Assembly: GCA_003221035.1 (NCBI GenBank)
Contig: QHUB01000028.1
Coordinates: 1-52,093, forward strand
Reading direction: 5' to 3'
Length of the DNA stretch: 52,093 bases
From: Gemmatimonadota bacterium
GTDB taxonomy: Bacteria; Gemmatimonadota; Gemmatimonadetes; Gemmatimonadales; GWC2-71-9
Positions 9,465-23,379 of the stretch are shown here, piece by piece. The translations under genes were made by a program, and so were the position numbers. The notes beneath the pieces are model-generated. The model saw nothing but the letters and a program-made list of their open reading frames with translations. It did not search any database and was not told the origin of the DNA. Positions within the stretch are counted from its first letter, which is position 1; each line of letters begins with the position of its first letter.

Positions 9465-11300
9465 ATCGTCGCGATCGGTTACGTCGACGGCGCGCGTTTC
9501 CGGCGCTCGCTGCTGGCCGCGGCCGATTGGGTGGCCGCCGGGCGCGACGAGCTGAATCGGATCAATGTTTTTCCGGTCCCCGACGGCGACACGGGGACGA
9601 ATATGTGCCTCACCCTGCGGTCCGTGGCCGCCGCCCTGCGCGAGCTTGGCAACGGCGACGGTGACGCGTCGCTTCCACTCCCCTCCGTCGCCGAGACGAT
9701 GGCCCAAGCCAGCATCCGCGGCGCGCGCGGCAACTCGGGAATGATGCTGTCGCAATTCCTCATCGGGTTCCGCGACGGCGTCGGCGAGCGCCTGCGCATC
9801 ACCGCGCGCGAGCTCGCCGCCGCCATCCGCATGGGGTTCGAGCGGTTGCACGCTTCGCTGGACGACCCCATGGAAGGCACGATCCTCACGGTCGCGCGCG
9901 AGACAGCCGACGAAGCCGGCGACGCCCGCGCTGAGTCTGACCTGCGCGTGTTCATGAGCCGCATCGTTACGCGAGCCGAAGCCGCCCTGCAGCGCACACC
10001 CGAGCTCCTCGCCGCGCTCAAGAACGCCGGCGTCGTTGACGCCGGCGCCAAGGGGTTCGTTCGGCTGCTCGAAGGCGTCAAGCGCCTGATCGAGGAAGGC
10101 CATGTCGCCCAGGGAGCGGTCGATCGCCTCACCGGACAGGCGGGAGCCAGCGCGGCGGCCCAGACCGAAGTCGAAGCCGACAAGGACTACCGCTACTGCA
10201 CCGAGCTGATGGTGCGATCGGCCACGCTGCCCGAGCCGGGGGCCGTGCGCACCGCCCTGCGGCCCCATGGGGGCTCCATCGTAGTGCTCGCGACGGGTGA
10301 TCTCCTAAAGGCTCATATTCACACCGACGCCCCAGATGCAGTCTTCACGCTGGCGAGCACCTGGGGCGCGCTCGAATCGACCAAGGCTGACGACATGCGG
10401 GCCCAGCACCAGGCGCTGCAGGCCCGCCGGCCGATCGCCTTCGTGAGCGACACAGCCTGCGACCTGCCGGACGAGTTGGTGCTGCAGTACGACATCGGCC
10501 TCGTGCCGATGCAGTTGATCGTGGACGATCGGGCGTACCGGGACCGGCTCGAGCTCACCGCAGGCGAGTTCTTTCGCCGCTTGCGCACGGGTCACGACGC
10601 CAGCACGTCCCAGCCGGCACCCCAGGCGTTCGCGGATGCCTATAGCGATGGGGCCCGTGCCGCAGATCGGGTCATTGCGGTGGCGGTCTCCAGCGCCCTT
10701 TCCGGCACGTACGCGAACGCCGAAGCTGCAGCCCGGCGCTTCGACACCCGCCAGGCGGGCGGGAACCCGGGGAGCCGGGTAACTGTGCTGGATAGCCGCA
10801 GCGCCTCCCTCGGCGAGGGGCTGCTGGTGATACGTGGCGTGGAGCTTGCTGCAGCAGGCTGGGAGGCGGACGCGATTGTGAAAGAGCTCCAGCGGGTCCG
10901 TGCGCAGTCGGGTGGCTTCTTTACGGTGGACAACTTCGAGCGGCTGGTGCGCTCAGGACGGCTGGGACGCGGGAGGGCGTGGCTGGGAACGAAGCTCAAT
11001 CTGAAGCCGGTGATGGCGCTGAGCCTGGAAGGTAAGATCGAACCCGTCGGCCGCGTGCGCGGCCGTGAGGCGGCTCGGCGCCGTGTGCTCGAGCTGCTCG
11101 ATCGCGCACTCACCCCGCGGCCGCGGGCGCTCCGGCTGGGGGTCGTGCACGGCGACATCCCCGCGTTTGCCGACGCGCTGAGGGTCGAGCTGGTCTCCCG
11201 CTACCGGCCGATGCAGTGCTTGGTGACGCCCATCACACCGGTCATCGCTGCGCATGCAGGCATTGGGGCATGGGGCGTGTTCTTTCAGAATGAAGACTGA
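9465..11300 (+). CDS. DhaL-DegV fusion, probable single-chain fatty acid kinase (FakA-FakB type)
   Basis: About 611 residues in three parts. The N-terminal DhaL/Dak2 ATP-binding domain contains NRINVFPVPDGDTGTNM (phosphate/Mg ligands) and GARGNSGMMLSQ. A middle domain typical of FakA follows (DYRYCTELMVRS, VLATGDLLKAHIHTDAP). The C-terminal DegV domain has SDTACDLPDEL, TSQPAPQAF and AVSSALSGTY, as in the acyl-binding FakB. In Firmicutes FakA phosphorylates fatty acids held by separate FakB proteins; here both would be in one chain. The first canonical start (GTG 9531) would remove the conserved YVDGARFRRSLLAAADW segment, so translation probably begins upstream, perhaps at ATC 9465 after GGAG. 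It overlaps rsfS by 11 bp. Confidence 0.88.
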   Translation: MVAIGYVDGARFRRSLLAAADWVAAGRDELNRINVFPVPDGDTGTNMCLTLRSVAAALRELGNGDGDASLPLPSVAETMAQASIRGARGNSGMMLSQFLIGFRDGVGERLRITARELAAAIRMGFERLHASLDDPMEGTILTVARETADEAGDARAESDLRVFMSRIVTRAEAALQRTPELLAALKNAGVVDAGAKGFVRLLEGVKRLIEEGHVAQGAVDRLTGQAGASAAAQTEVEADKDYRYCTELMVRSATLPEPGAVRTALRPHGGSIVVLATGDLLKAHIHTDAPDAVFTLASTWGALESTKADDMRAQHQALQARRPIAFVSDTACDLPDELVLQYDIGLVPMQLIVDDRAYRDRLELTAGEFFRRLRTGHDASTSQPAPQAFADAYSDGARAADRVIAVAVSSALSGTYANAEAAARRFDTRQAGGNPGSRVTVLDSRSASLGEGLLVIRGVELAAAGWEADAIVKELQRVRAQSGGFFTVDNFERLVRSGRLGRGRAWLGTKLNLKPVMALSLEGKIEPVGRVRGREAARRRVLELLDRALTPRPRALRLGVVHGDIPAFADALRVELVSRYRPMQCLVTPITPVIAAHAGIGAWGVFFQNED

Positions 11301-11649
11301 GCTCGCTCAAGTCGTCGACGTGCTCGTAGATCGCAAGGCCGTCGATCCGGTGGTACTGGATTTGCGCGGGTTATGCGAGGCGACCGACTATTTCGTGATC
11401 GCGTCGGGAACATCGGATGCACACGTGCGGGGTATGGCAGAGCACCTTGTGACGGCCCTCGCACCAGGCGGTTTGGAGCCGCATCATGTGGAAGGACTGG
11501 CCCAAGGCCGCTGGGTGTTACTCGATTACGTCGATTTTGTAGTGCACGTGTTTCATCCGGAATTGCGCGAGTTTTATCAGTTGGAGCGGCTGTGGGGGGA
11601 TGCGCCCGTCGTCGCTGCCGGCGAGAGTGGAGGCAGGCGCGAAGGGTGA
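11290..11649 (+). CDS. rsfS: Ribosomal silencing factor RsfS
   Basis: A 119-residue cytoplasmic protein that binds L14 on free 50S subunits and blocks subunit joining under starvation. It carries the family pattern VVLDLRGLCEATDYFVIASGTSDAHVRGMAEH and then GRWVLLDYVDFVVHVFHPELREFY, in a compact alpha/beta domain. The ATG at 11290 overlaps the end of the DhaL-DegV gene by 11 bp. An in-frame GTG/ATG further up would only add residues encoded by the overlapping frame. NadD, a frequent rsfS neighbour, is not here. Confidence 0.95.
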   Translation: MKTELAQVVDVLVDRKAVDPVVLDLRGLCEATDYFVIASGTSDAHVRGMAEHLVTALAPGGLEPHHVEGLAQGRWVLLDYVDFVVHVFHPELREFYQLERLWGDAPVVAAGESGGRREG

Positions 11650-11662
11650 GGGGAGAGGAAGC

Positions 11663-14600
11663 ATGCGAGGTGTAGCGCGGCTCGTTGGAGGGGCGTTGGT
11701 CGCGGCGCTGGCATTGGCTGCGGCACCGGGGGGAGCGTCCGCGCAGTACTTCGGTCAGAACAAGGTGCAGTACCGCAGTTTCAAGTTCCAATCGATTCAG
11801 ACCGAACACTTCGACATCTACTACTATCCGGACGAGCGCCCTGGCGCGCTCGATGCGGCGCGCATGGCCGAGCGGGCCTACGCGCGGTTGTCGCGCATCC
11901 TGCACCATCAGTTCCAGAGCCGGAAGCCGATCATCCTGTACGCCTCGCAAGGGGACTTCCAGCAGACAAACGTCGTCGACGCATCGGGCGAAGGCCTGGG
12001 CGGCGTAACGGAGTTTTTCAAGCATCGCGCGGTGCTGCCCTTCACGGGCTCGTACGCCGAATTCGAGCACGTCCTGCAGCACGAGATGGTCCACCAGTTC
12101 CAGTACGACGTGTACAGCCGCGGGCATCCCGGCGCGGGCGTGCAGACGTTGATGGCGGTCAATCCGCCACTGTGGTTCATGGAGGGGATGGCGGAGTATT
12201 TGTCGCTCGGGCCGATCAATCCCGAGACGGCGATGTGGCTGCGCGACGCGGCGCTCGAAGGACATTTGCCGTCCATCGAAGACATGACGAATGACCCCTA
12301 CATCTTCCCCTACCGGTACGGCCACGCGCTGTGGGCGTACATCGGCGAGAAGTGGGGCGATGAGGTGATCGGCGAGATCCTGCAGACGTCCGTCACGTCC
12401 GGCCTCGAGCCCGCGTTCAAGCGCGCGACCGGACGGTCGCTCGAGGATCTTTCGAACGACTGGCGCGATGCGATCCAGACCACGTTCCTGCCGCAACTTG
12501 GCGATCACTATCGCGCGCGGCGGATCGCGCAGCCCACGCTCACCCAGCGGCATTCGCGCGGGCGCCTGTTCCTCGCGCCGGCCCTGTCGCCGGACGGCAA
12601 GAAGCTCGCGTTCTTCGGCGACGAGGGCGGCTTCTTCGTGGATTTGTGGCTCGCCGACGGCGAGACGGGGCACGTCCTGAAGCGGCTCGTGAAGTCCACG
12701 CAGAACAACAACTACGAGAGCCTGCGGTTCATCAATTCGGCGGGCTCATTTTCGCCCGACGGCCGCTACTTCGCGATGGCCGCCAAGCGAAAAGACCGCG
12801 ACGACCTGGTGATCCTCGACGTGAAGAAGGACAAAGAGGAGCGCCGCATCAGCGTTCCGCTGAGCGCGATTCAGACGCCGCACTGGTCACCCGACGGTCA
12901 ACAGCTCGTGTTCACCGGCTTCAGCGGCGGCTTTACCGATCTGTTCATGATCAACCGCGACGGCACCGGGCTGCGGCGCCTCACGGACGACAAGTTCGCG
13001 GACTTGCAGCCGTCGTGGTCGCCGGACGGGCGGACCATCGCGTTCGTGACCGACCGCGGCCCCGGCACCGATTTCGACTTGCTGCGCTTCGGCAACCTGC
13101 GCATCGCCCTGCTCCACCTCGAGAGCGGCCAGATCGACTTGCTCGGTCACATGGACCTGGGCCACAACATCAATCCGCTGTGGGCGCCGGACGGCCGGTC
13201 GATCGCCTTCGTCTCGGATCGTACTGGAATCGGCAACATCTTCCTGTATGACTTGACCGACGGGCAGATCTATCAGCTCACGAACATGTTCACGGGCGTC
13301 CAGGGCATCACCCCGCTGTCGCCCGTGCTCAGCTGGGCCTCGCAAGCCGATCGCATGGCCTTCGTCTATTACGAGGATGGCCAGTACAGCGTGTATTCAA
13401 TCGAGAATCCGCGCTCGCTCCGGCGCGCGCCGTTCCACGGCCCGACCACGATGCCGGTCGTATCGCTGCTGGAGCGCGAGCGGCTTGACAGCCTGCTGTC
13501 GGCGCCGTCCTTGTTCGAAGAAGTGTCGAGCGCAAATCCCAACACGATGGGCGGAACGACCACACCGTCCGCCGGTCCACCGGATGCATCGGCGCCAATG
13601 TCGATCTACCGGTCGCCGTCGGGATTCCGGCCGTCCGCGGAGCCCGATCCCGCCGGCGAGCAGACGACGCCGCCGCCGGTCACCGTGCGCGCGCTGCTCG
13701 ACTCGGCGACGCTGGCGCTGCCCGACACAACGGAGTTCACGTTCCGGCCCTACAAAGTACGGTTCACAGCCGACTACGTCGTCCGTCCGACGGTCGGCTA
13801 CCAACGCGACAACTTCGGACGCGGCGTGTTCGGTGGCACCGCGATCGCGCTGTCCGACATCCTCGGCAACCACTCGGTGGTCCTGGCCGGCTCGATCAAT
13901 GGCCGCATCAGCGAAGCCCAGGTCCTCGGGCTGTACGTCAATCAGTCGCGCCGGCTGAACTGGGCGGGCGGGTTCTCGCAGGATCCGTTCTACTTTTATG
14001 GCGGGAGCGACTGGACGCGCATCGAGAAACCGGGCAGCCCGGGCGACAGTCTCGACGTCTACGCGACGCGCATTCGCCGGTTTGTGACTCGCGATCTGTT
14101 CACCGAGTCGTCTTATCCATTCAGCCGCTTCAACCGCGTCGAGCTCGGATTCCATGCGGTCAACGTGGCGGAGGCGACGCTCGAGCTGCGGACGATGTAC
14201 GATGCCGGCACGAACTCGTACGTCGACCAGCAACTCATCCAGGGCCGCGGACCGTCCGCGATGTACATCCAGCCGACGATCGCGCACGTCCATGACAACA
14301 CGTTGTTCGGCTACGTCGGACCGTTCGCGGGCTCGCGCTCGCGTTTCTCGATTGCGCCGGCCATCGGCTCCTGGTCGTTTGCCGCGGCGATGGTCGACTA
14401 CCGCCGGTACGTATTCTTCAAGCCGTTCACGGTCGCGGTCCGCGGGCTGATGTTCGGCCGCTTCGGCCGCGACGGCGATCGCTTCCCCGTCTTCCTCGGC
14501 AGCCCCGAGTTGATTCGCGGCTACACGTCCGGATCGTTCCGCGGACACGAGTGCTCGCTCGGTCCACAAGGAGCTCGGACCGGATGCCCAGAGCTCGATC

Positions 14601-14935
14601 AGCTGATTGGATCGAGGATCGCCGTGGGGAACGTCGAGCTGCGCTTCCCGTTGACCCGCAGCCTGGTGCTCGGATTCCTGCCGGTCGGCCTGCCGCCGGT
14701 TGAAGGCGCGGTGTTCTATGACATCGGAATGGCGTGGAACGGCACGAGCACTGTGAAATGGGACCGCTCGCCGCTCGCAGATCCGGTGCTCGTGCGGACG
14801 CCGTTGCGCAGCTGGGGCTGGTCGATCCGCGCCAACATGTTCGGGTTGATGATCATGCGGTTCGACTTCAGCAAGCCGCTGGACCGGCCGGAGAAGAAGG
14901 CGTATTGGACCATCAGTTTAGGTCCGACGTTCTAA
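11663..14935 (+). CDS. Exported gluzincin-like metallopeptidase / PD40 beta-propeller / Omp85-like barrel fusion
   Basis: A 1090-residue protein with a signal peptide cleaved near GASAQ (residue 28). An MA-clan peptidase-like domain follows at about 35-290, with HEMVH at 140-144 and the downstream WFMEGMAEY supplying the probable third zinc ligand (E174). WD40-like/TolB propeller blades occupy about 290-620, with repeated SPDG(K/R), WSPDG and WAPDG motifs. After a Pro/Ser-rich linker, about 700-1090 looks like an outer-membrane barrel: alternating strands, SPELIRGYTSGSF resembling the Omp85 RGF/Y loop, NVELRFPLTRS, and a terminal phenylalanine as in BAM substrates. ATG 11663 follows GGGAGAGGAA. 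The role is unknown; a surface or periplasmic protease tethered to its own barrel is the inference. Confidence 0.85.
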   Translation: MRGVARLVGGALVAALALAAAPGGASAQYFGQNKVQYRSFKFQSIQTEHFDIYYYPDERPGALDAARMAERAYARLSRILHHQFQSRKPIILYASQGDFQQTNVVDASGEGLGGVTEFFKHRAVLPFTGSYAEFEHVLQHEMVHQFQYDVYSRGHPGAGVQTLMAVNPPLWFMEGMAEYLSLGPINPETAMWLRDAALEGHLPSIEDMTNDPYIFPYRYGHALWAYIGEKWGDEVIGEILQTSVTSGLEPAFKRATGRSLEDLSNDWRDAIQTTFLPQLGDHYRARRIAQPTLTQRHSRGRLFLAPALSPDGKKLAFFGDEGGFFVDLWLADGETGHVLKRLVKSTQNNNYESLRFINSAGSFSPDGRYFAMAAKRKDRDDLVILDVKKDKEERRISVPLSAIQTPHWSPDGQQLVFTGFSGGFTDLFMINRDGTGLRRLTDDKFADLQPSWSPDGRTIAFVTDRGPGTDFDLLRFGNLRIALLHLESGQIDLLGHMDLGHNINPLWAPDGRSIAFVSDRTGIGNIFLYDLTDGQIYQLTNMFTGVQGITPLSPVLSWASQADRMAFVYYEDGQYSVYSIENPRSLRRAPFHGPTTMPVVSLLERERLDSLLSAPSLFEEVSSANPNTMGGTTTPSAGPPDASAPMSIYRSPSGFRPSAEPDPAGEQTTPPPVTVRALLDSATLALPDTTEFTFRPYKVRFTADYVVRPTVGYQRDNFGRGVFGGTAIALSDILGNHSVVLAGSINGRISEAQVLGLYVNQSRRLNWAGGFSQDPFYFYGGSDWTRIEKPGSPGDSLDVYATRIRRFVTRDLFTESSYPFSRFNRVELGFHAVNVAEATLELRTMYDAGTNSYVDQQLIQGRGPSAMYIQPTIAHVHDNTLFGYVGPFAGSRSRFSIAPAIGSWSFAAAMVDYRRYVFFKPFTVAVRGLMFGRFGRDGDRFPVFLGSPELIRGYTSGSFRGHECSLGPQGARTGCPELDQLIGSRIAVGNVELRFPLTRSLVLGFLPVGLPPVEGAVFYDIGMAWNGTSTVKWDRSPLADPVLVRTPLRSWGWSIRANMFGLMIMRFDFSKPLDRPEKKAYWTISLGPTF

Positions 14936-14998: not shown

Positions 14999-16390
14999 TT
15001 GCCCATCTCCCGCTTCCTTCTGCTTGCGACTGCGACGCTTTGGGGTTGTGGATCCCAAGCGGCGACGGCTGGATCGTCGCAAAAACAGTCACCCCAACAA
15101 GTTAGCCAGATACAGATCCTCGCGCGCTCGCCCGGTGTGGCCATCCGGCTGCCAGCCAAGGGCGGCACGCCCGGGCTCTATCGACTTCCGCGGCTGACGC
15201 CCGTCGATGGCATCCTCAAGGGGAAGCTGCCCCCGGTCGAGCGCGTGGTCGGTCTCGACGCCGAGTCGGAATACCTGTTCGTGACCACGGCCAAGCATGA
15301 GCTGCTCGCGCTGGACTTGGGCAGCGGTCGAGTGGATACGGTCGCCGTTGCGGTGGCGAAAGCCGCGCTCGGACCCGATGGGACGTTGTACGCGGTCGAT
15401 ACGCTGCGACACGTGATCTCGCTGTCGCGCCGCACGCGCTTCGCGTGGCCGCAAGCGCTTACCGCGGTGCCGCGCGATCTGTTCGGCGCCACCGATCAGC
15501 ATCTGGTTGGCGTGATTCCGCAGGATCGCCTGCTCGTCGCGGCGGCGGATCAGCCGGCGACGGTGCGGCCCATCGCCGCAGGGGGGGATGTCGCCGCGTC
15601 GCGCTGGGGCGATCTGGTCGCCGTCGCGAGCGACTCCGGCGTGACGTTCTACGATCCGCTCGGACGCCGCGATCCGGGATTCATCAGGCTCGCCGACGCG
15701 CCGCGCGCGCTCGCGTTCTCACCATCGGGTCACCGCATCTATGTCGCGCGACGCAATGTGCCCGGGTTGGCCGTCGTCGACCGCTACGATCGCAAAGAGC
15801 TCGACGGCGTCGCGTTACCCGGCCCGGTCGCGGCGCTGCGCCTCGATCCGCTGGGGCGCTGGCTGCTCGCCCGTCCCGCCGTGGGCGACTCAGCATGGAT
15901 CGTCGATCTCCCCATCAAGCGTCACACCGGGATCGTGCCGACCGAATGGCAGGCTGACCTGCCGGCGATTTCGCCCGACGGCATGTTGATCTACAGACAT
16001 GGCAAGGACGTCTTGTCCGCGCGACCCGATTCCCTGACCGATGTCGGGAAAATCGTGGGGGGCGCCGCTGATCTGTGGGTGCTCACGTCGTGGCTGCCGC
16101 GCGGCGTGCCGGCGAGCCCCGTCGCGTCAGCAGCGGGGGCCGACACGTCGGGCACGAGTGGTCCGGAAGGCCCGATGTACGTCCAGGTGTCCACGTCACA
16201 GAATCCAGAATGGTCCGGCCATCTCGCCGATGACCTCGCGCGCGCGGGACTGCCGGCTCGCGTGTTGCCGCCCCAGCATACCGACGAAGGCTATCGCGTC
16301 GTGCTCGGACCGTACGCCACGCGCGAGCAGGCCGAAGCCACCGGCCGGCGACTCGGCCGCCCCTTCTGGATCTACCAGCCGGGACAGTGA
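14999..16390 (+). CDS. Beta-propeller lipoprotein with C-terminal SPOR domain
   Basis: A 463-residue protein. The N-terminus FLLLATATLWGC has the form of a lipoprotein signal with lipidated Cys17. The body (about 50-370) is made of short beta repeats resembling a YVTN/quinoprotein-type propeller (LLALDLGSGRVDT, RALAFSPSGHRIYVARR). The last 75 residues (MYVQVSTSQNPEW to GRPFWIYQPG) match a SPOR domain, which binds denuded peptidoglycan at division sites. The start is TTG at 14999 with GAGG four bases before it. The stop overlaps the GTG of the next SPOR gene (GTGA). No known ortholog is recognised; a division-associated envelope role is inferred from the SPOR domain and from smc downstream. 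Confidence 0.75.
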   Translation: MPISRFLLLATATLWGCGSQAATAGSSQKQSPQQVSQIQILARSPGVAIRLPAKGGTPGLYRLPRLTPVDGILKGKLPPVERVVGLDAESEYLFVTTAKHELLALDLGSGRVDTVAVAVAKAALGPDGTLYAVDTLRHVISLSRRTRFAWPQALTAVPRDLFGATDQHLVGVIPQDRLLVAAADQPATVRPIAAGGDVAASRWGDLVAVASDSGVTFYDPLGRRDPGFIRLADAPRALAFSPSGHRIYVARRNVPGLAVVDRYDRKELDGVALPGPVAALRLDPLGRWLLARPAVGDSAWIVDLPIKRHTGIVPTEWQADLPAISPDGMLIYRHGKDVLSARPDSLTDVGKIVGGAADLWVLTSWLPRGVPASPVASAAGADTSGTSGPEGPMYVQVSTSQNPEWSGHLADDLARAGLPARVLPPQHTDEGYRVVLGPYATREQAEATGRRLGRPFWIYQPGQ

Positions 16391-17628
16391 CCACCCAGCG
16401 GCAACTCCCGCTCTCGCGGCTCGGTCATCTGGTTCCACCGCTCCTCGACGGCGCGGCGCTGATCGCACTGATCCCGATCACGCAGGATCTGCCCTGGGCC
16501 GCGAAGGCGGCGTGGGACATCGCGCGTATCGCCGCGCGTGACGGTCGCCGCGTCGCACTGGTGGACCTGTGTCTCGAGCATCCCGTACTCCACGAGACGG
16601 TCGGTCTCAAGGCGACTGAAGGAATCGTGGATGCGTTCGAATACGGTGTATCGCTGAACAAGGCGGCGCACGAGGTCACCGGCGTCTTCATCATTCCCGC
16701 CGGCTCCGAGACCGCTCACCCCGCCGACGTGTACGCGCATGAGCGCTGGCGCAAGTTGCACGCGGGATTCCGGTCTGAGGGCGCGTTACTGATCGCGCTG
16801 CTGCCCCTGAACGGACTCGCGCAGTTCTCGGCGACTCCCGACGGCGCCATCGCGCTCGCCCCCGAAGGCCTCGGCGCCGATTTTTCGCTCGAGCGCGACG
16901 TGCCCCTGCTGGGTGTCGTGCGCGACCGCTGGTTGCCCTCGCATTCGCGCACATCGCCGCCGCCGATGCCGATGCCCGTTGCTGAAGGGCCGCGGCGCTC
17001 GTCGCGACTGACAGCGGCGTTCCTGATCGTAGCGGCGCTCGCGGCGAGTGGTTGGGCACTGGCGCGCGCGCGGGAGGCTTTCGTCGCACCTCCCAAGCAG
17101 CCCGCGACGGCTCCCCGTCCCGCGCCTCCTGGCGCTCCACGCGCGCTCCCTGCTTCGCCGCCAACCGCGATCGAGAGACTCGACACGCTGGGATGGACCA
17201 TCCAGCTCGCGGCATACACGTCGCTGGACAAGGCGCTGGCGCATGCGGATCGGCTCAGCGCGGATGCCGGCGTTCCTGCACTCGTGACGCCGCTTCCTCA
17301 GGTCGGCAGCGGGCCGGTCTGGTACCGCGTGCTCGCCGGCTCATACGCGACGCGCGCGGCCGCCGGCACCGCGCGCGCAAACCTCTGGCGGCGAGGCATA
17401 GCGTCGGCGGGAGTTGGCGACTTGCTGCTCGCACCGTATTCCTACCACGCGCCGGCCGGGACGTCGCTCGACTCACTGCGGCACAAGGGCCTGCCGGCAG
17501 TGCGCTGGTCGAATGGCGTCATTCTGCTCGGGGCATTCGAAGCAGCCGAACAGGCAGCGTACACGCAGGGCCAACTCAAGCGCGCCGGCGTGCGCGCGAA
17601 CCTACTCCCTCGCATGGGGACACCATGA
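16387..17628 (+). CDS. Degenerate ParA/MinD-like protein with membrane segment and SPOR repeats
   Basis: 413 residues. Residues about 25-190 follow the order of a ParA/MinD or Wzc-type ATPase: strand ALIALIPI, a helix where the P-loop should be (TQDLPWAAKAAWDIARIAARDG), then RRVALVDLCLEHPVLHETVG like the Walker A-prime/B region. The Walker A GKGGxGKS is absent, so ATP binding is doubtful. A hydrophobic helix (about 203-221) crosses the membrane, followed by a Pro-rich linker. A SPOR-like domain at about 265-345 (WTIQLAAYTSLDKALAHADRL) and a partial second unit (GVILLGAFEAAEQAAYTQGQL) complete it. It overlaps both neighbours by four bases, so it is coupled to smc. Confidence 0.72.
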   Translation: MTTQRQLPLSRLGHLVPPLLDGAALIALIPITQDLPWAAKAAWDIARIAARDGRRVALVDLCLEHPVLHETVGLKATEGIVDAFEYGVSLNKAAHEVTGVFIIPAGSETAHPADVYAHERWRKLHAGFRSEGALLIALLPLNGLAQFSATPDGAIALAPEGLGADFSLERDVPLLGVVRDRWLPSHSRTSPPPMPMPVAEGPRRSSRLTAAFLIVAALAASGWALARAREAFVAPPKQPATAPRPAPPGAPRALPASPPTAIERLDTLGWTIQLAAYTSLDKALAHADRLSADAGVPALVTPLPQVGSGPVWYRVLAGSYATRAAAGTARANLWRRGIASAGVGDLLLAPYSYHAPAGTSLDSLRHKGLPAVRWSNGVILLGAFEAAEQAAYTQGQLKRAGVRANLLPRMGTP

Positions 17629-21117: not shown

Positions 21118-23379
21118 ATGCGACGGTTCATCTGGCTCGTATTTCTGCCTGCGGGATTGGCGGCGCAGCGGCCCGCCGTCTCCCCCGTCCTGCCGCGCTT
21201 CCTCGCGCGGCAGATCGACACCACCCTCTCCGTATGGCTGTTCGCGCGACCTGACGCGTCGCTCGACGCGTTGCGCGAGCGGCTCGCCACACAAGGCGTC
21301 CGCGTGCGCGTCCAGAGCCGGTGGCTGCACGCCGTGAGCGCCGACGTTTCGACCGCCGTGCTGCGCGACCTGCTCCAGGACCGCGAGCTCAGGCGGATTC
21401 AGCCGCTCGGCCGCTTCAAGCAGCGTGCGCCGCCGCCCGTACGGCCTACCATCACAGCCCCGGGCGCCCCGGGAGATACCTGCGGCTTCACCACCGGCGA
21501 TGATCCTGTCCTCGGTCCATCCGAAATGCCTTACCGCCGGCTGCATCTGCGGCCGCTGACCGATCAGGGAATCGACGGCACCGGCGTGCGTATCGCGATC
21601 TTCGATACGGGATTCGACACCGCAAACACCGCGTTCAACGGCATCACGATTACCGCCCAACATGACTTCGTCTTCAACGACGGCTTCGTGAGGGATCAGC
21701 CGAACGATCAGCCGGGCGCGCAGTCGCACGGTACGGCGACCTGGTCGTTGTTCGCGGGGGATGTGCCTGGGCGGCTGCACGGGATCACCCGCGGCGCGCA
21801 CTTTCTGCTCGCGAAGACTGAGGATGTGCGCTCGGAGACGCGGGTTGAGGAAGACAACTACGTCGCCGCGCTCGAGTGGGCCGATTCGATCGGCGTGGAC
21901 ATCGTGTCGTCGAGCCTCGCCTACCTCTCGTTCGACAACGGATTCAGCTACACGCCGTCGCAGCTGAACGGCGATATCGCAGTGACCACGGTCGCGGCGG
22001 ACATGGCGGCGCAGCGTGGCATTCTCGTGGTAACCGCGGCCGGTAACAGCGGGCCCGGCTCGCGCACCGTGTGGACGCCTGCCGATGGAGACTCCGTGCT
22101 CGCCATCGGCGCCGAGGACTCGCTCGGCGCCATCGCGATTTTCTCCTCACGCGGCCCAACCGCGGACGGCCGCATCAAGCCGGACTTCACCGGTCCCGGG
22201 GTCGCGGTGTGCGTCGTCACGGGCCAGGGCCACGTGGGACGTCTGGACGGGACGTCGTTCTCGACGCCGCTGCTGGCCGCGAGCGCCGGGCTGCTCAAAC
22301 AGATGCACCCGACGCTGCTGCCGATGGACATTCGCACGGCGTTTCGGAAGACCGGAACGCATAGCTCCGCGCCGGACACGACGTTTGGTTGGGGACGGCC
22401 CGACGTGGCGGCGGCAGCCGTGTTTCCCGCCGGCGTGACGGCGCTCGCGCCGCTGCCCAGCGCCGGCCCGCTGACCACAGTCACCCCCGCCTTCTCGTGG
22501 AGCGCGGGGACGCTGCCCGCATTCGCGATGCCGGTCACGTACCACCTGCGCGTCGGCCGCGACAGCACGCTGGCGAACCCGCTGGTGGATACCGCGATAA
22601 CGGCCCAGACATTCGCGCCCGGGCAGGCCTTCAAGGCGGGGAATGTGTTCTGGCGCGTGGACGCAACTGCCGCAAGTGGCGAGACGGCGACAACCGGACC
22701 GATCGGTCCCGTCAGCGTACCGCCCTGGGCGACGCTCGTTACGTTCAACAATCCCGCCGGCGTCGTGATCGATACCGCGCAGCCAACATTCATCTGGGAC
22801 CCGGCGCTCGTCTCGAGCCCGCCCGGACCGTTTCTGTACGATCTCCGTGTGCAGCGCGTCGCGACCGGAGCCATCGACATCATCGCCCTGGGATTGACCG
22901 ACACGACCTACGAGCTGACGCAAGCGCTCGAGCGCAACACCGCCTATCGCTGGATCCTGACCGTCCATGCGGGCGCTGATACGAGCATCCTGCGAAGCCA
23001 GGGTTCGATTCTGGTCGTAGATCTAGGCATGCCGACCGCCACGCTGCTCTATCAAAATTTCCCCAACCCATTCCCCACCGGCGGCCGCGATTCGACGTGC
23101 CTCTGGTTCGACGTAGCGATCGCGGGCAACGTAGAGCTCGACATTCTGGACCTGCGGGGCAACCGCGTGCGCCGCTTCGTGCCGGGACGGGATTTCCCCG
23201 GCGTCCTGGGGCCGGGCCGCTACGGCCGGGGATCGGGCACCGGAGGGATCTGCGATCCGCGCTTGATGTGGGATGGCCGCTCGGACGATGGTCAGCTGTT
23301 GCCCGCCGGCGTATATCTCGCCAAGCTCAAAGCGCCCGGGTTGTTGGTCTTCAAGCGGATCGTATTCCGCGGAAAGTGA
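21118..23379 (+). CDS. Secreted subtilisin-like (S8) serine protease with FlgD-like C-terminal domain
   Basis: 753 residues with a short signal peptide ending LAAQ. The propeptide-like region is residues 20-130. The catalytic domain has the triad D163 (IAIFDTGFD), H204 (QSHGTATWS) and S380 (GTSFSTP), with oxyanion N310 (TAAGNSG). Two fibronectin-like beta domains (about 440-540 and 545-640) follow. The C-terminal stretch beginning TATLLYQNFPNPF and ending DGQLLPAGVYLAKLKAP is a FlgD Ig-like/secretion-tail module of the kind common in FCB-group exported proteins. Four cysteines (two in the propeptide/catalytic region, two in the tail) may form disulfides. It starts at ATG 21118, 28 bp after smc. 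Confidence 0.93.
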   Translation: MRRFIWLVFLPAGLAAQRPAVSPVLPRFLARQIDTTLSVWLFARPDASLDALRERLATQGVRVRVQSRWLHAVSADVSTAVLRDLLQDRELRRIQPLGRFKQRAPPPVRPTITAPGAPGDTCGFTTGDDPVLGPSEMPYRRLHLRPLTDQGIDGTGVRIAIFDTGFDTANTAFNGITITAQHDFVFNDGFVRDQPNDQPGAQSHGTATWSLFAGDVPGRLHGITRGAHFLLAKTEDVRSETRVEEDNYVAALEWADSIGVDIVSSSLAYLSFDNGFSYTPSQLNGDIAVTTVAADMAAQRGILVVTAAGNSGPGSRTVWTPADGDSVLAIGAEDSLGAIAIFSSRGPTADGRIKPDFTGPGVAVCVVTGQGHVGRLDGTSFSTPLLAASAGLLKQMHPTLLPMDIRTAFRKTGTHSSAPDTTFGWGRPDVAAAAVFPAGVTALAPLPSAGPLTTVTPAFSWSAGTLPAFAMPVTYHLRVGRDSTLANPLVDTAITAQTFAPGQAFKAGNVFWRVDATAASGETATTGPIGPVSVPPWATLVTFNNPAGVVIDTAQPTFIWDPALVSSPPGPFLYDLRVQRVATGAIDIIALGLTDTTYELTQALERNTAYRWILTVHAGADTSILRSQGSILVVDLGMPTATLLYQNFPNPFPTGGRDSTCLWFDVAIAGNVELDILDLRGNRVRRFVPGRDFPGVLGPGRYGRGSGTGGICDPRLMWDGRSDDGQLLPAGVYLAKLKAPGLLVFKRIVFRGK

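What the first reader, a model, noticed from the sequence alone, without database searches (positions are those of the whole stretch)
11663..14935. Metallopeptidase, beta-propeller and Omp85-like barrel in one chain
HEMVH plus a downstream Glu, PD40/TolB blades, and a C-terminal barrel with an RGY loop and terminal Phe form one exported protein. TolB-like propellers normally dock on envelope complexes, and Omp85 barrels insert or translocate proteins. A protease and propeller physically tethered to an Omp85-like pore suggests a self-contained surface-processing or secretion device.
Basis: partly seen in the sequence, partly recalled or inferred. Interest (0 to 1): 0.7.

Follow-up and report, generated by a model that had tools for sequence, protein, structure and literature searches.

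The report
Peptidase–propeller–Omp85 outer-membrane fusion protein
One gene encodes a protein that joins a zinc-peptidase domain, a TolB-like propeller and a BamA-like outer-membrane barrel; this fusion belongs to a widespread but essentially undescribed bacterial family, probably an outer-membrane-anchored protease that helps assemble or police outer-membrane proteins.

Summary
The gene at 11663-14935 (+) encodes 1090 aa: a signal peptide, a gluzincin-fold metallopeptidase (HEMVH plus E174), a TolB-like propeller, and a 16-strand Omp85 barrel with an L6 RGY motif and terminal Phe. A predicted model (pLDDT 87, pTM 0.84) matches TolB (Z 26) and BamA/Sam50 (Z about 22-24). The peptidase domain modelled alone matches collagenases and M1 aminopeptidases (Z up to 16).

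The fusion is not a one-off. 197 of 200 near-complete genomes of the phylum (Gemmatimonadota) carry the family. Full-length relatives occur in several other phyla. The host has four paralogues plus a separate POTRA-bearing BamA. One paralogue lies in a conserved operon with an exported prolyl isomerase, a lipoprotein and LptE.

Omp85 topology and the PlpD precedent put the peptidase in the periplasm, so an outer-membrane assembly or quality-control protease (BepA-like role) is likelier. Propeller-Omp85 proteins are a known subfamily (WD40-Omp85, 2014); I found no description of the N-terminal peptidase. New variant of a known kind. Catalysis, location and substrate are untested.

The parts
11663..14935 (+). 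CDS, 1090 aa: signal peptide, gluzincin peptidase, propeller, linker, Omp85 barrel
   Evidence: dN/dS 0.04-0.37 in all domains
11663..11743 (+). Sec signal peptide, about residues 1-27 (VARLVGGALVAALALAAAPGGASAQ)
   Evidence: read from the sequence; low model confidence in residues 1-29
11744..12511 (+). gluzincin metallopeptidase domain, residues 28-283
   Evidence: modelled alone: pLDDT 88, Z up to 16.4 to M9 collagenases, 13-14 to M1; weak BSP / M9 / Peptidase_MA_2 profile hits
12080..12094 (+). HEMVH zinc-binding motif, residues 140-144
   Evidence: invariant
12182..12184 (+). E174, predicted third zinc ligand (PPLWFMEGMAEY)
   Evidence: 79/79 invariant, not part of the search seed
12512..13432 (+). 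TolB-like PD40 beta-propeller, residues 284-590
   Evidence: PD40 in 5 stretches; Z 26 to TolB
13433..13732 (+). poorly conserved linker, residues 591-690
   Evidence: pLDDT under 50 over much of 618-668; lowest conservation of the mature protein
13733..14932 (+). Omp85 (BamA/Sam50-like) 16-strand barrel, residues 691-1090
14516..14524 (+). RGY of the L6 loop, residues 952-954 (LIRGY; VRGF/Y-type motif of Omp85)
   Evidence: R952 and G953 79/79
11254..11649 (+). upstream neighbour: RsfS (ribosome silencing factor)
   Evidence: Pfam; next to the gene in 54 of 80 loci
14999..17628 (+). downstream neighbours: two SPOR-domain proteins (14999-16390, 16387-17628)
   Evidence: Pfam SPOR; first in 47 and second in 29 of 80 loci

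Best explanation
This is an outer-membrane protein anchored by an Omp85-type barrel, with its TolB-like propeller and zinc gluzincin peptidase facing the periplasm. Most likely it works as an assembly or quality-control factor. The barrel or propeller recognises unfolded beta-strand segments of outer-membrane proteins at the membrane, and the tethered peptidase clips stalled or misfolded clients. That would put in one chain a role that in E. coli is shared by BamA (insertase), BamB (propeller) and BepA (metallopeptidase). Shown by homology, conservation or predicted model: the three folds, the intact catalytic residues, export, purifying selection, near-universality in the phylum, and a paralogue in an LptE/PPIase operon. 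Inferred: orientation, proteolytic activity, client identity, and whether the barrel inserts proteins or only anchors the enzyme.
For: Barrel of BamA/Sam50 fold with invariant L6 RG and an aromatic C-terminus. Gluzincin fold with invariant HExxH+E. The peptidase is the most constrained domain: dN/dS 0.04-0.05 against about 0.14 for the propeller and 0.17 for the barrel in the two closest relatives, so activity is probably needed. 197/200 near-complete genomes of the phylum carry the family, which fits a housekeeping role. A canonical POTRA-bearing BamA next to lpx genes is present separately, so this is an accessory Omp85. The C113 paralogue is in a conserved operon 4HBT - exported cyclophilin/HEAT - fusion - lipoprotein - LptE - RfaE2, with PPIase, lipoprotein and LptE found in 12 of 12 relatives examined. 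In E. coli, LptD assembly needs BAM and is policed by the metallopeptidase BepA (PMC8423444). PlpD sets the precedent for a periplasmic enzyme domain on an Omp85 barrel (PMC11116518).
Against: The operon evidence comes from a paralogue about 27% identical, not from this gene; this gene's own neighbours (rplI, DAK2/DegV, RsfS, SPOR, SPOR, SMC) do not point to outer-membrane protein assembly. There is no POTRA domain, the usual substrate-handling part of Omp85 proteins. No activity, location or interaction data exist. Outside Gemmatimonadota no shared neighbourhood was found. The genome also has three M48 peptidases, so BepA-like functions may be covered elsewhere.
Confidence: 0.45

Rival explanations
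1. The barrel is only an anchor or pore. The protein is a periplasmic, outer-membrane-tethered peptidase that degrades or processes peptides, lipoproteins or wall-linked proteins, with the propeller as substrate filter, and has no role in inserting outer-membrane proteins.
For: Peptidase most conserved, barrel least conserved of the three domains; no POTRA; the host has its own BamA; SPOR-domain genes next door; PlpD precedent for an Omp85 scaffold used for an enzyme.
Against: The L6 RG motif is invariant in 79 of 79, which an inert anchor would not obviously need; a paralogue is in an LptE/PPIase operon.
Confidence: 0.3
2. Secretion or surface-processing device: the barrel translocates a client, or the protein's own N-terminal domains, to the cell surface while the peptidase trims it.
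For: Omp85/TpsB barrels can translocate proteins; PlpD was first read this way. A collagenase-like (M9) fold would suit extracellular protein degradation.
Against: In PlpD the enzyme domain stays in the periplasm; a 256-residue folded peptidase plus a folded propeller would have to pass a narrow barrel; no adjacent secreted client was recognised in the conserved locus.
Confidence: 0.15
3. Artefact: a gene fusion by assembly error, or chance motif matches.
For: The genome is a 113-contig draft.
Against: Same full-length frame in dozens of independent genomes from several phyla and four such genes in the host; confident model.
Confidence: 0.01

Closest known systems
WD40-Omp85 subfamily (Heinz & Lithgow 2014, PMC4104836)
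   Same: Beta-propeller closest to TolB, N-terminal to an Omp85 barrel, without POTRA; suggested there to resemble a BamA-BamB fusion.
   Different: That paper's text does not mention a peptidase domain in this group; here an intact gluzincin precedes the propeller. Whether their cluster members also carry it was not checked (supplementary tables were not available).
PlpD / patatin-Omp85 (type Vd)
   Same: Enzyme domain N-terminal to an Omp85 barrel.
   Different: PlpD has a patatin lipase and one POTRA; here a metallopeptidase and a propeller, no POTRA.
'Metallo' Omp85 subfamily of Heinz & Lithgow 2014
   Same: Omp85 barrel with a metal-dependent N-terminal domain.
   Different: Their domain is PF00149 (a Pfam metallophosphoesterase family, from my own knowledge; the paper calls it a metalloprotease), unrelated to HExxH gluzincins.
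BepA (E. coli M48 peptidase acting at BAM)
   Same: Periplasmic HExxH metallopeptidase working at an Omp85 barrel: the proposed functional analogue.
   Different: Separate protein with TPR repeats, family M48; this domain has no M48 match and its nearest folds are M9 and M1.
TolB
   Same: Propeller fold, Z 26.
   Different: Below the TolB model cut-off (131 of 343 bits); fused to other domains.

Membership tests
Omp85 superfamily (barrel) | C-terminal BamA/Sam50-type 16-strand barrel | tested here: met
   Pfam Omp85 38.3 bits over the cut-off of 24; model aligns over about 300-350 residues with BamA/Sam50, Z about 22-24; 11 strands before L6 and 5 after, read from DSSP (closure itself not measured)
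Omp85 superfamily (barrel) | VRGF/Y-type motif in L6 | tested here: met
   LIRGY at 950-954; R and G 79/79
Classical Omp85 (BamA/TamA/PlpD type) | at least one POTRA domain | tested here: not met
   No POTRA by Pfam in this protein; found in other host proteins
WD40-Omp85 subfamily | TolB-like propeller followed by Omp85 barrel, no POTRA | tested here: met
WD40-Omp85 subfamily | sequence clustering with the 2014 cluster members | not tested
Peptidase clan MA, gluzincins | HExxH plus downstream Glu, in a gluzincin fold | tested here: met
   H140, E141, H144, E174 invariant; fold Z up to 16.4 to M9, 13-14 to M1
Peptidase clan MA, gluzincins | curated profile cut-off | tested here: inconclusive
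   Domain alone: BSP 23.7 of 23.8 and Peptidase_MA_2 16.5 of 32.4; the C64 paralogue passes BSP, 25.1
Peptidase clan MA, gluzincins | zinc-dependent peptidase activity | not testable with these tools
   needs a biochemical assay
TolB (TIGR02800 equivalog) | score over the family cut-off | tested here: not met
   131 bits against 343
BepA / M48 peptidase | M48 domain (PF01435) | tested here: not met
   No M48 match in the Pfam scan; host M48 proteins are other genes

The most novel reading that the evidence does not exclude
A multi-phylum family of single-chain outer-membrane assembly and quality-control machines, in which insertase barrel, substrate-binding propeller and protease are fused, working beside BamA as a core envelope component in Gemmatimonadota.
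Probability: 0.35. Interest if true: 0.8.

Novelty: new variant of a known kind. Interest (0 to 1): 0.55.

Why it matters
Outer-membrane biogenesis is known mainly from Proteobacteria and, recently, Bacteroidota. A near-universal, multi-copy Omp85 family with a built-in protease in Gemmatimonadota, also found in other phyla, suggests that insertion and quality control can be physically coupled. It also gives a directly testable candidate, and it corrects the view of these proteins as mere 'TolB-like' or 'PD40' hypothetical proteins.

Tried and rejected
TolB membership: rejected on score. Assembly or chance artefact: rejected. Phage or mobile origin: the viral scan returned only two short fragmentary HExxH-region matches. 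A shared neighbourhood outside Gemmatimonadota, as a functional clue: none found. A BamB equivalog: hits only below cut-off, so presence or absence of BamB is unclear. Literature searches for PD40+Omp85, 'peptidase MA'+Omp85 and WD40-Omp85 found nothing beyond the 2014 paper; gluzincin+Omp85 returned one paper, on a mitochondrial type II secretion relative, which was not read. The F. johnsoniae BAM complex paper (PMC12611786) contains neither 'peptidase' nor 'propeller' in its text.

Full report
Observation. The reading frame is real and intact. The start at 11663 follows a purine-rich stretch and gives a signal peptide ending ASAQ; close relatives start at about the same place. The protein has 1090 residues. 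Pfam finds PD40 repeats (5 stretches, 104 bits) and an Omp85 domain (38.3 bits, cut-off 24) over cut-off, and peptidase families (BSP, M9) only below cut-off. In relatives and paralogues the same region matches Peptidase_MA_2 and BSP, the latter over cut-off in the C64 paralogue.

Structure. AlphaFold2 on a 79-sequence alignment gave pLDDT 87.3 and pTM 0.84. Residues about 285-587 match TolB (Z about 26), and about 703-1090 match BamA, Sam50 and TamA barrels (Z about 21.5-24, about 15% identity). DSSP shows 11 strands before the long L6 segment and five after it, as in Omp85 barrels; two short strands at 702-716 precede them, and closure of the barrel was not measured on coordinates. The peptidase domain folded alone (pLDDT 88, pTM 0.87) matches M9 collagenases (Z up to 16.4) and M1 aminopeptidases (Z about 13-14). 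Foldseek's own E-values for that domain are weak (best 1.1e-3), so the clan is well supported and the family within it is not settled.

Conservation. In 29 sequences collected by whole-protein similarity, H140, E141, H144 and E174 are invariant. In the 79-sequence set from several phyla they are again invariant, but that set was seeded on patterns that included HExxH, so only E174, R952 and G953 are unbiased there. The C-terminal residue is F, Y or W in 78 of 79. Between this gene and its two closest full-length relatives, dN/dS is 0.04-0.05 for the peptidase, about 0.14 for the propeller and 0.17 for the barrel (a simple Nei-Gojobori estimate). The peptidase is the most constrained domain, which argues for an active enzyme.

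Distribution. The host is inferred to be a member of Gemmatimonadota, because its close relatives carry that name. 197 of 200 genomes of the phylum that are at least 90% complete have a relative at E up to 1e-60; some of these best hits are paralogue-type. Full-length relatives are present in Acidobacteriota including Aminicenantes and Vicinamibacterales, in Rhodothermales, a Latescibacterota genome and a Calditrichia genome. At the same threshold 23 of 80 genomes drawn from the phylum of an Acidobacteriota locus and 48 of 80 from the phylum of the Rhodothermales locus have a hit (kinship is not told for these). The host has three further fusion proteins: C64 (1042 aa), C113 (971 aa) and the divergent C81 (950 aa), all with HExxH, a downstream Glu and an RGY loop. 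A tree places this gene in a large Gemmatimonadota clade, with the C64 paralogue among sequences from other phyla (support of the deep branches was not examined).

Context. In Gemmatimonadota the gene lies in rplI - (DAK2/DegV) - RsfS - gene - SPOR - SPOR - SMC; RsfS is adjacent in 54 of 80 loci. Outside the phylum no shared neighbour was found. The C113 paralogue lies in an operon: 4HBT thioesterase, an exported cyclophilin with HEAT repeats (frame overlapping the fusion gene by 4 nt), the fusion, a lipoprotein-like ORF, LptE (42 bits, cut-off 23), an RfaE2-like cytidylyltransferase and an XTPase. PPIase, lipoprotein and LptE are found beside the paralogue in all 12 relatives examined, one of them with the PPIase cut by the contig end. 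The host also has a canonical BamA beside LpxD, LpxC and LpxA (the lpx names rest on my reading of the translations) and two further POTRA-Omp85 proteins.

Mechanism. Omp85 barrels keep their N-terminal parts in the periplasm, and the well-studied enzyme-Omp85 fusion PlpD was shown to keep its enzyme in the periplasm, against an earlier secretion model (PMC11116518). So the peptidase and propeller most likely face the periplasm. In E. coli the metallopeptidase BepA acts on LptD while it assembles on BAM, promoting maturation or degrading stalled intermediates (PMC8423444). A peptidase tethered to a BamA-type barrel, with a paralogue encoded between a prolyl isomerase and LptE, fits the same job. 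That is an inference: no activity, location or client is shown, and the operon evidence is from a paralogue. The main rival is that the barrel is merely an anchor for a periplasmic peptidase.

Novelty. Propeller-Omp85 proteins without POTRA were named WD40-Omp85 in 2014 (PMC4104836). The word 'peptidase' does not occur in that paper's main text, and my full-text searches found no description of a gluzincin in such proteins. Only open-licence papers were searched, so this is weak evidence of absence. I call it a new variant of a known kind; if the 2014 members all carry the peptidase, it is better described as an overlooked domain of a known subfamily.

Noticed in passing
L161:2865-5780 (G000:C113), with neighbours L161:1686-8171: Paralogue of the fusion in a conserved operon with an exported cyclophilin/HEAT protein, a lipoprotein-like 238-aa ORF and LptE; found in 12 of 12 relatives examined.
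   Followed up: yes
L163:3524-6376 (G000:C81): Divergent fourth fusion gene; its upstream neighbour is an N-acetylmuramoyl-L-alanine amidase (Amidase_3) and its downstream neighbour a Ser/Thr kinase with a TonB C-terminal-like match.
   Followed up: partly
window 21118-23379 (+): Subtilase-like exported protein (by eye) with a C-terminal 'YQNFPNPF' stretch resembling FlgD-like / type IX sorting regions.
   Followed up: no
window 14999-17628 (+): Two consecutive SPOR-domain proteins, conserved beside the fusion gene in Gemmatimonadota, just before an SMC gene.
   Followed up: partly
L139:502-2238 (G000:C19) and L138:1348-3222 (G000:C45): Further host proteins with weak Omp85 matches but N-termini unlike POTRA or propeller by eye; no domain scan was run on them.
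   Followed up: no
G000, TIGR02800 hits: Forty-six TolB-type propeller matches in the host genome, none over the TolB cut-off: a large set of PD40 proteins.
   Followed up: no
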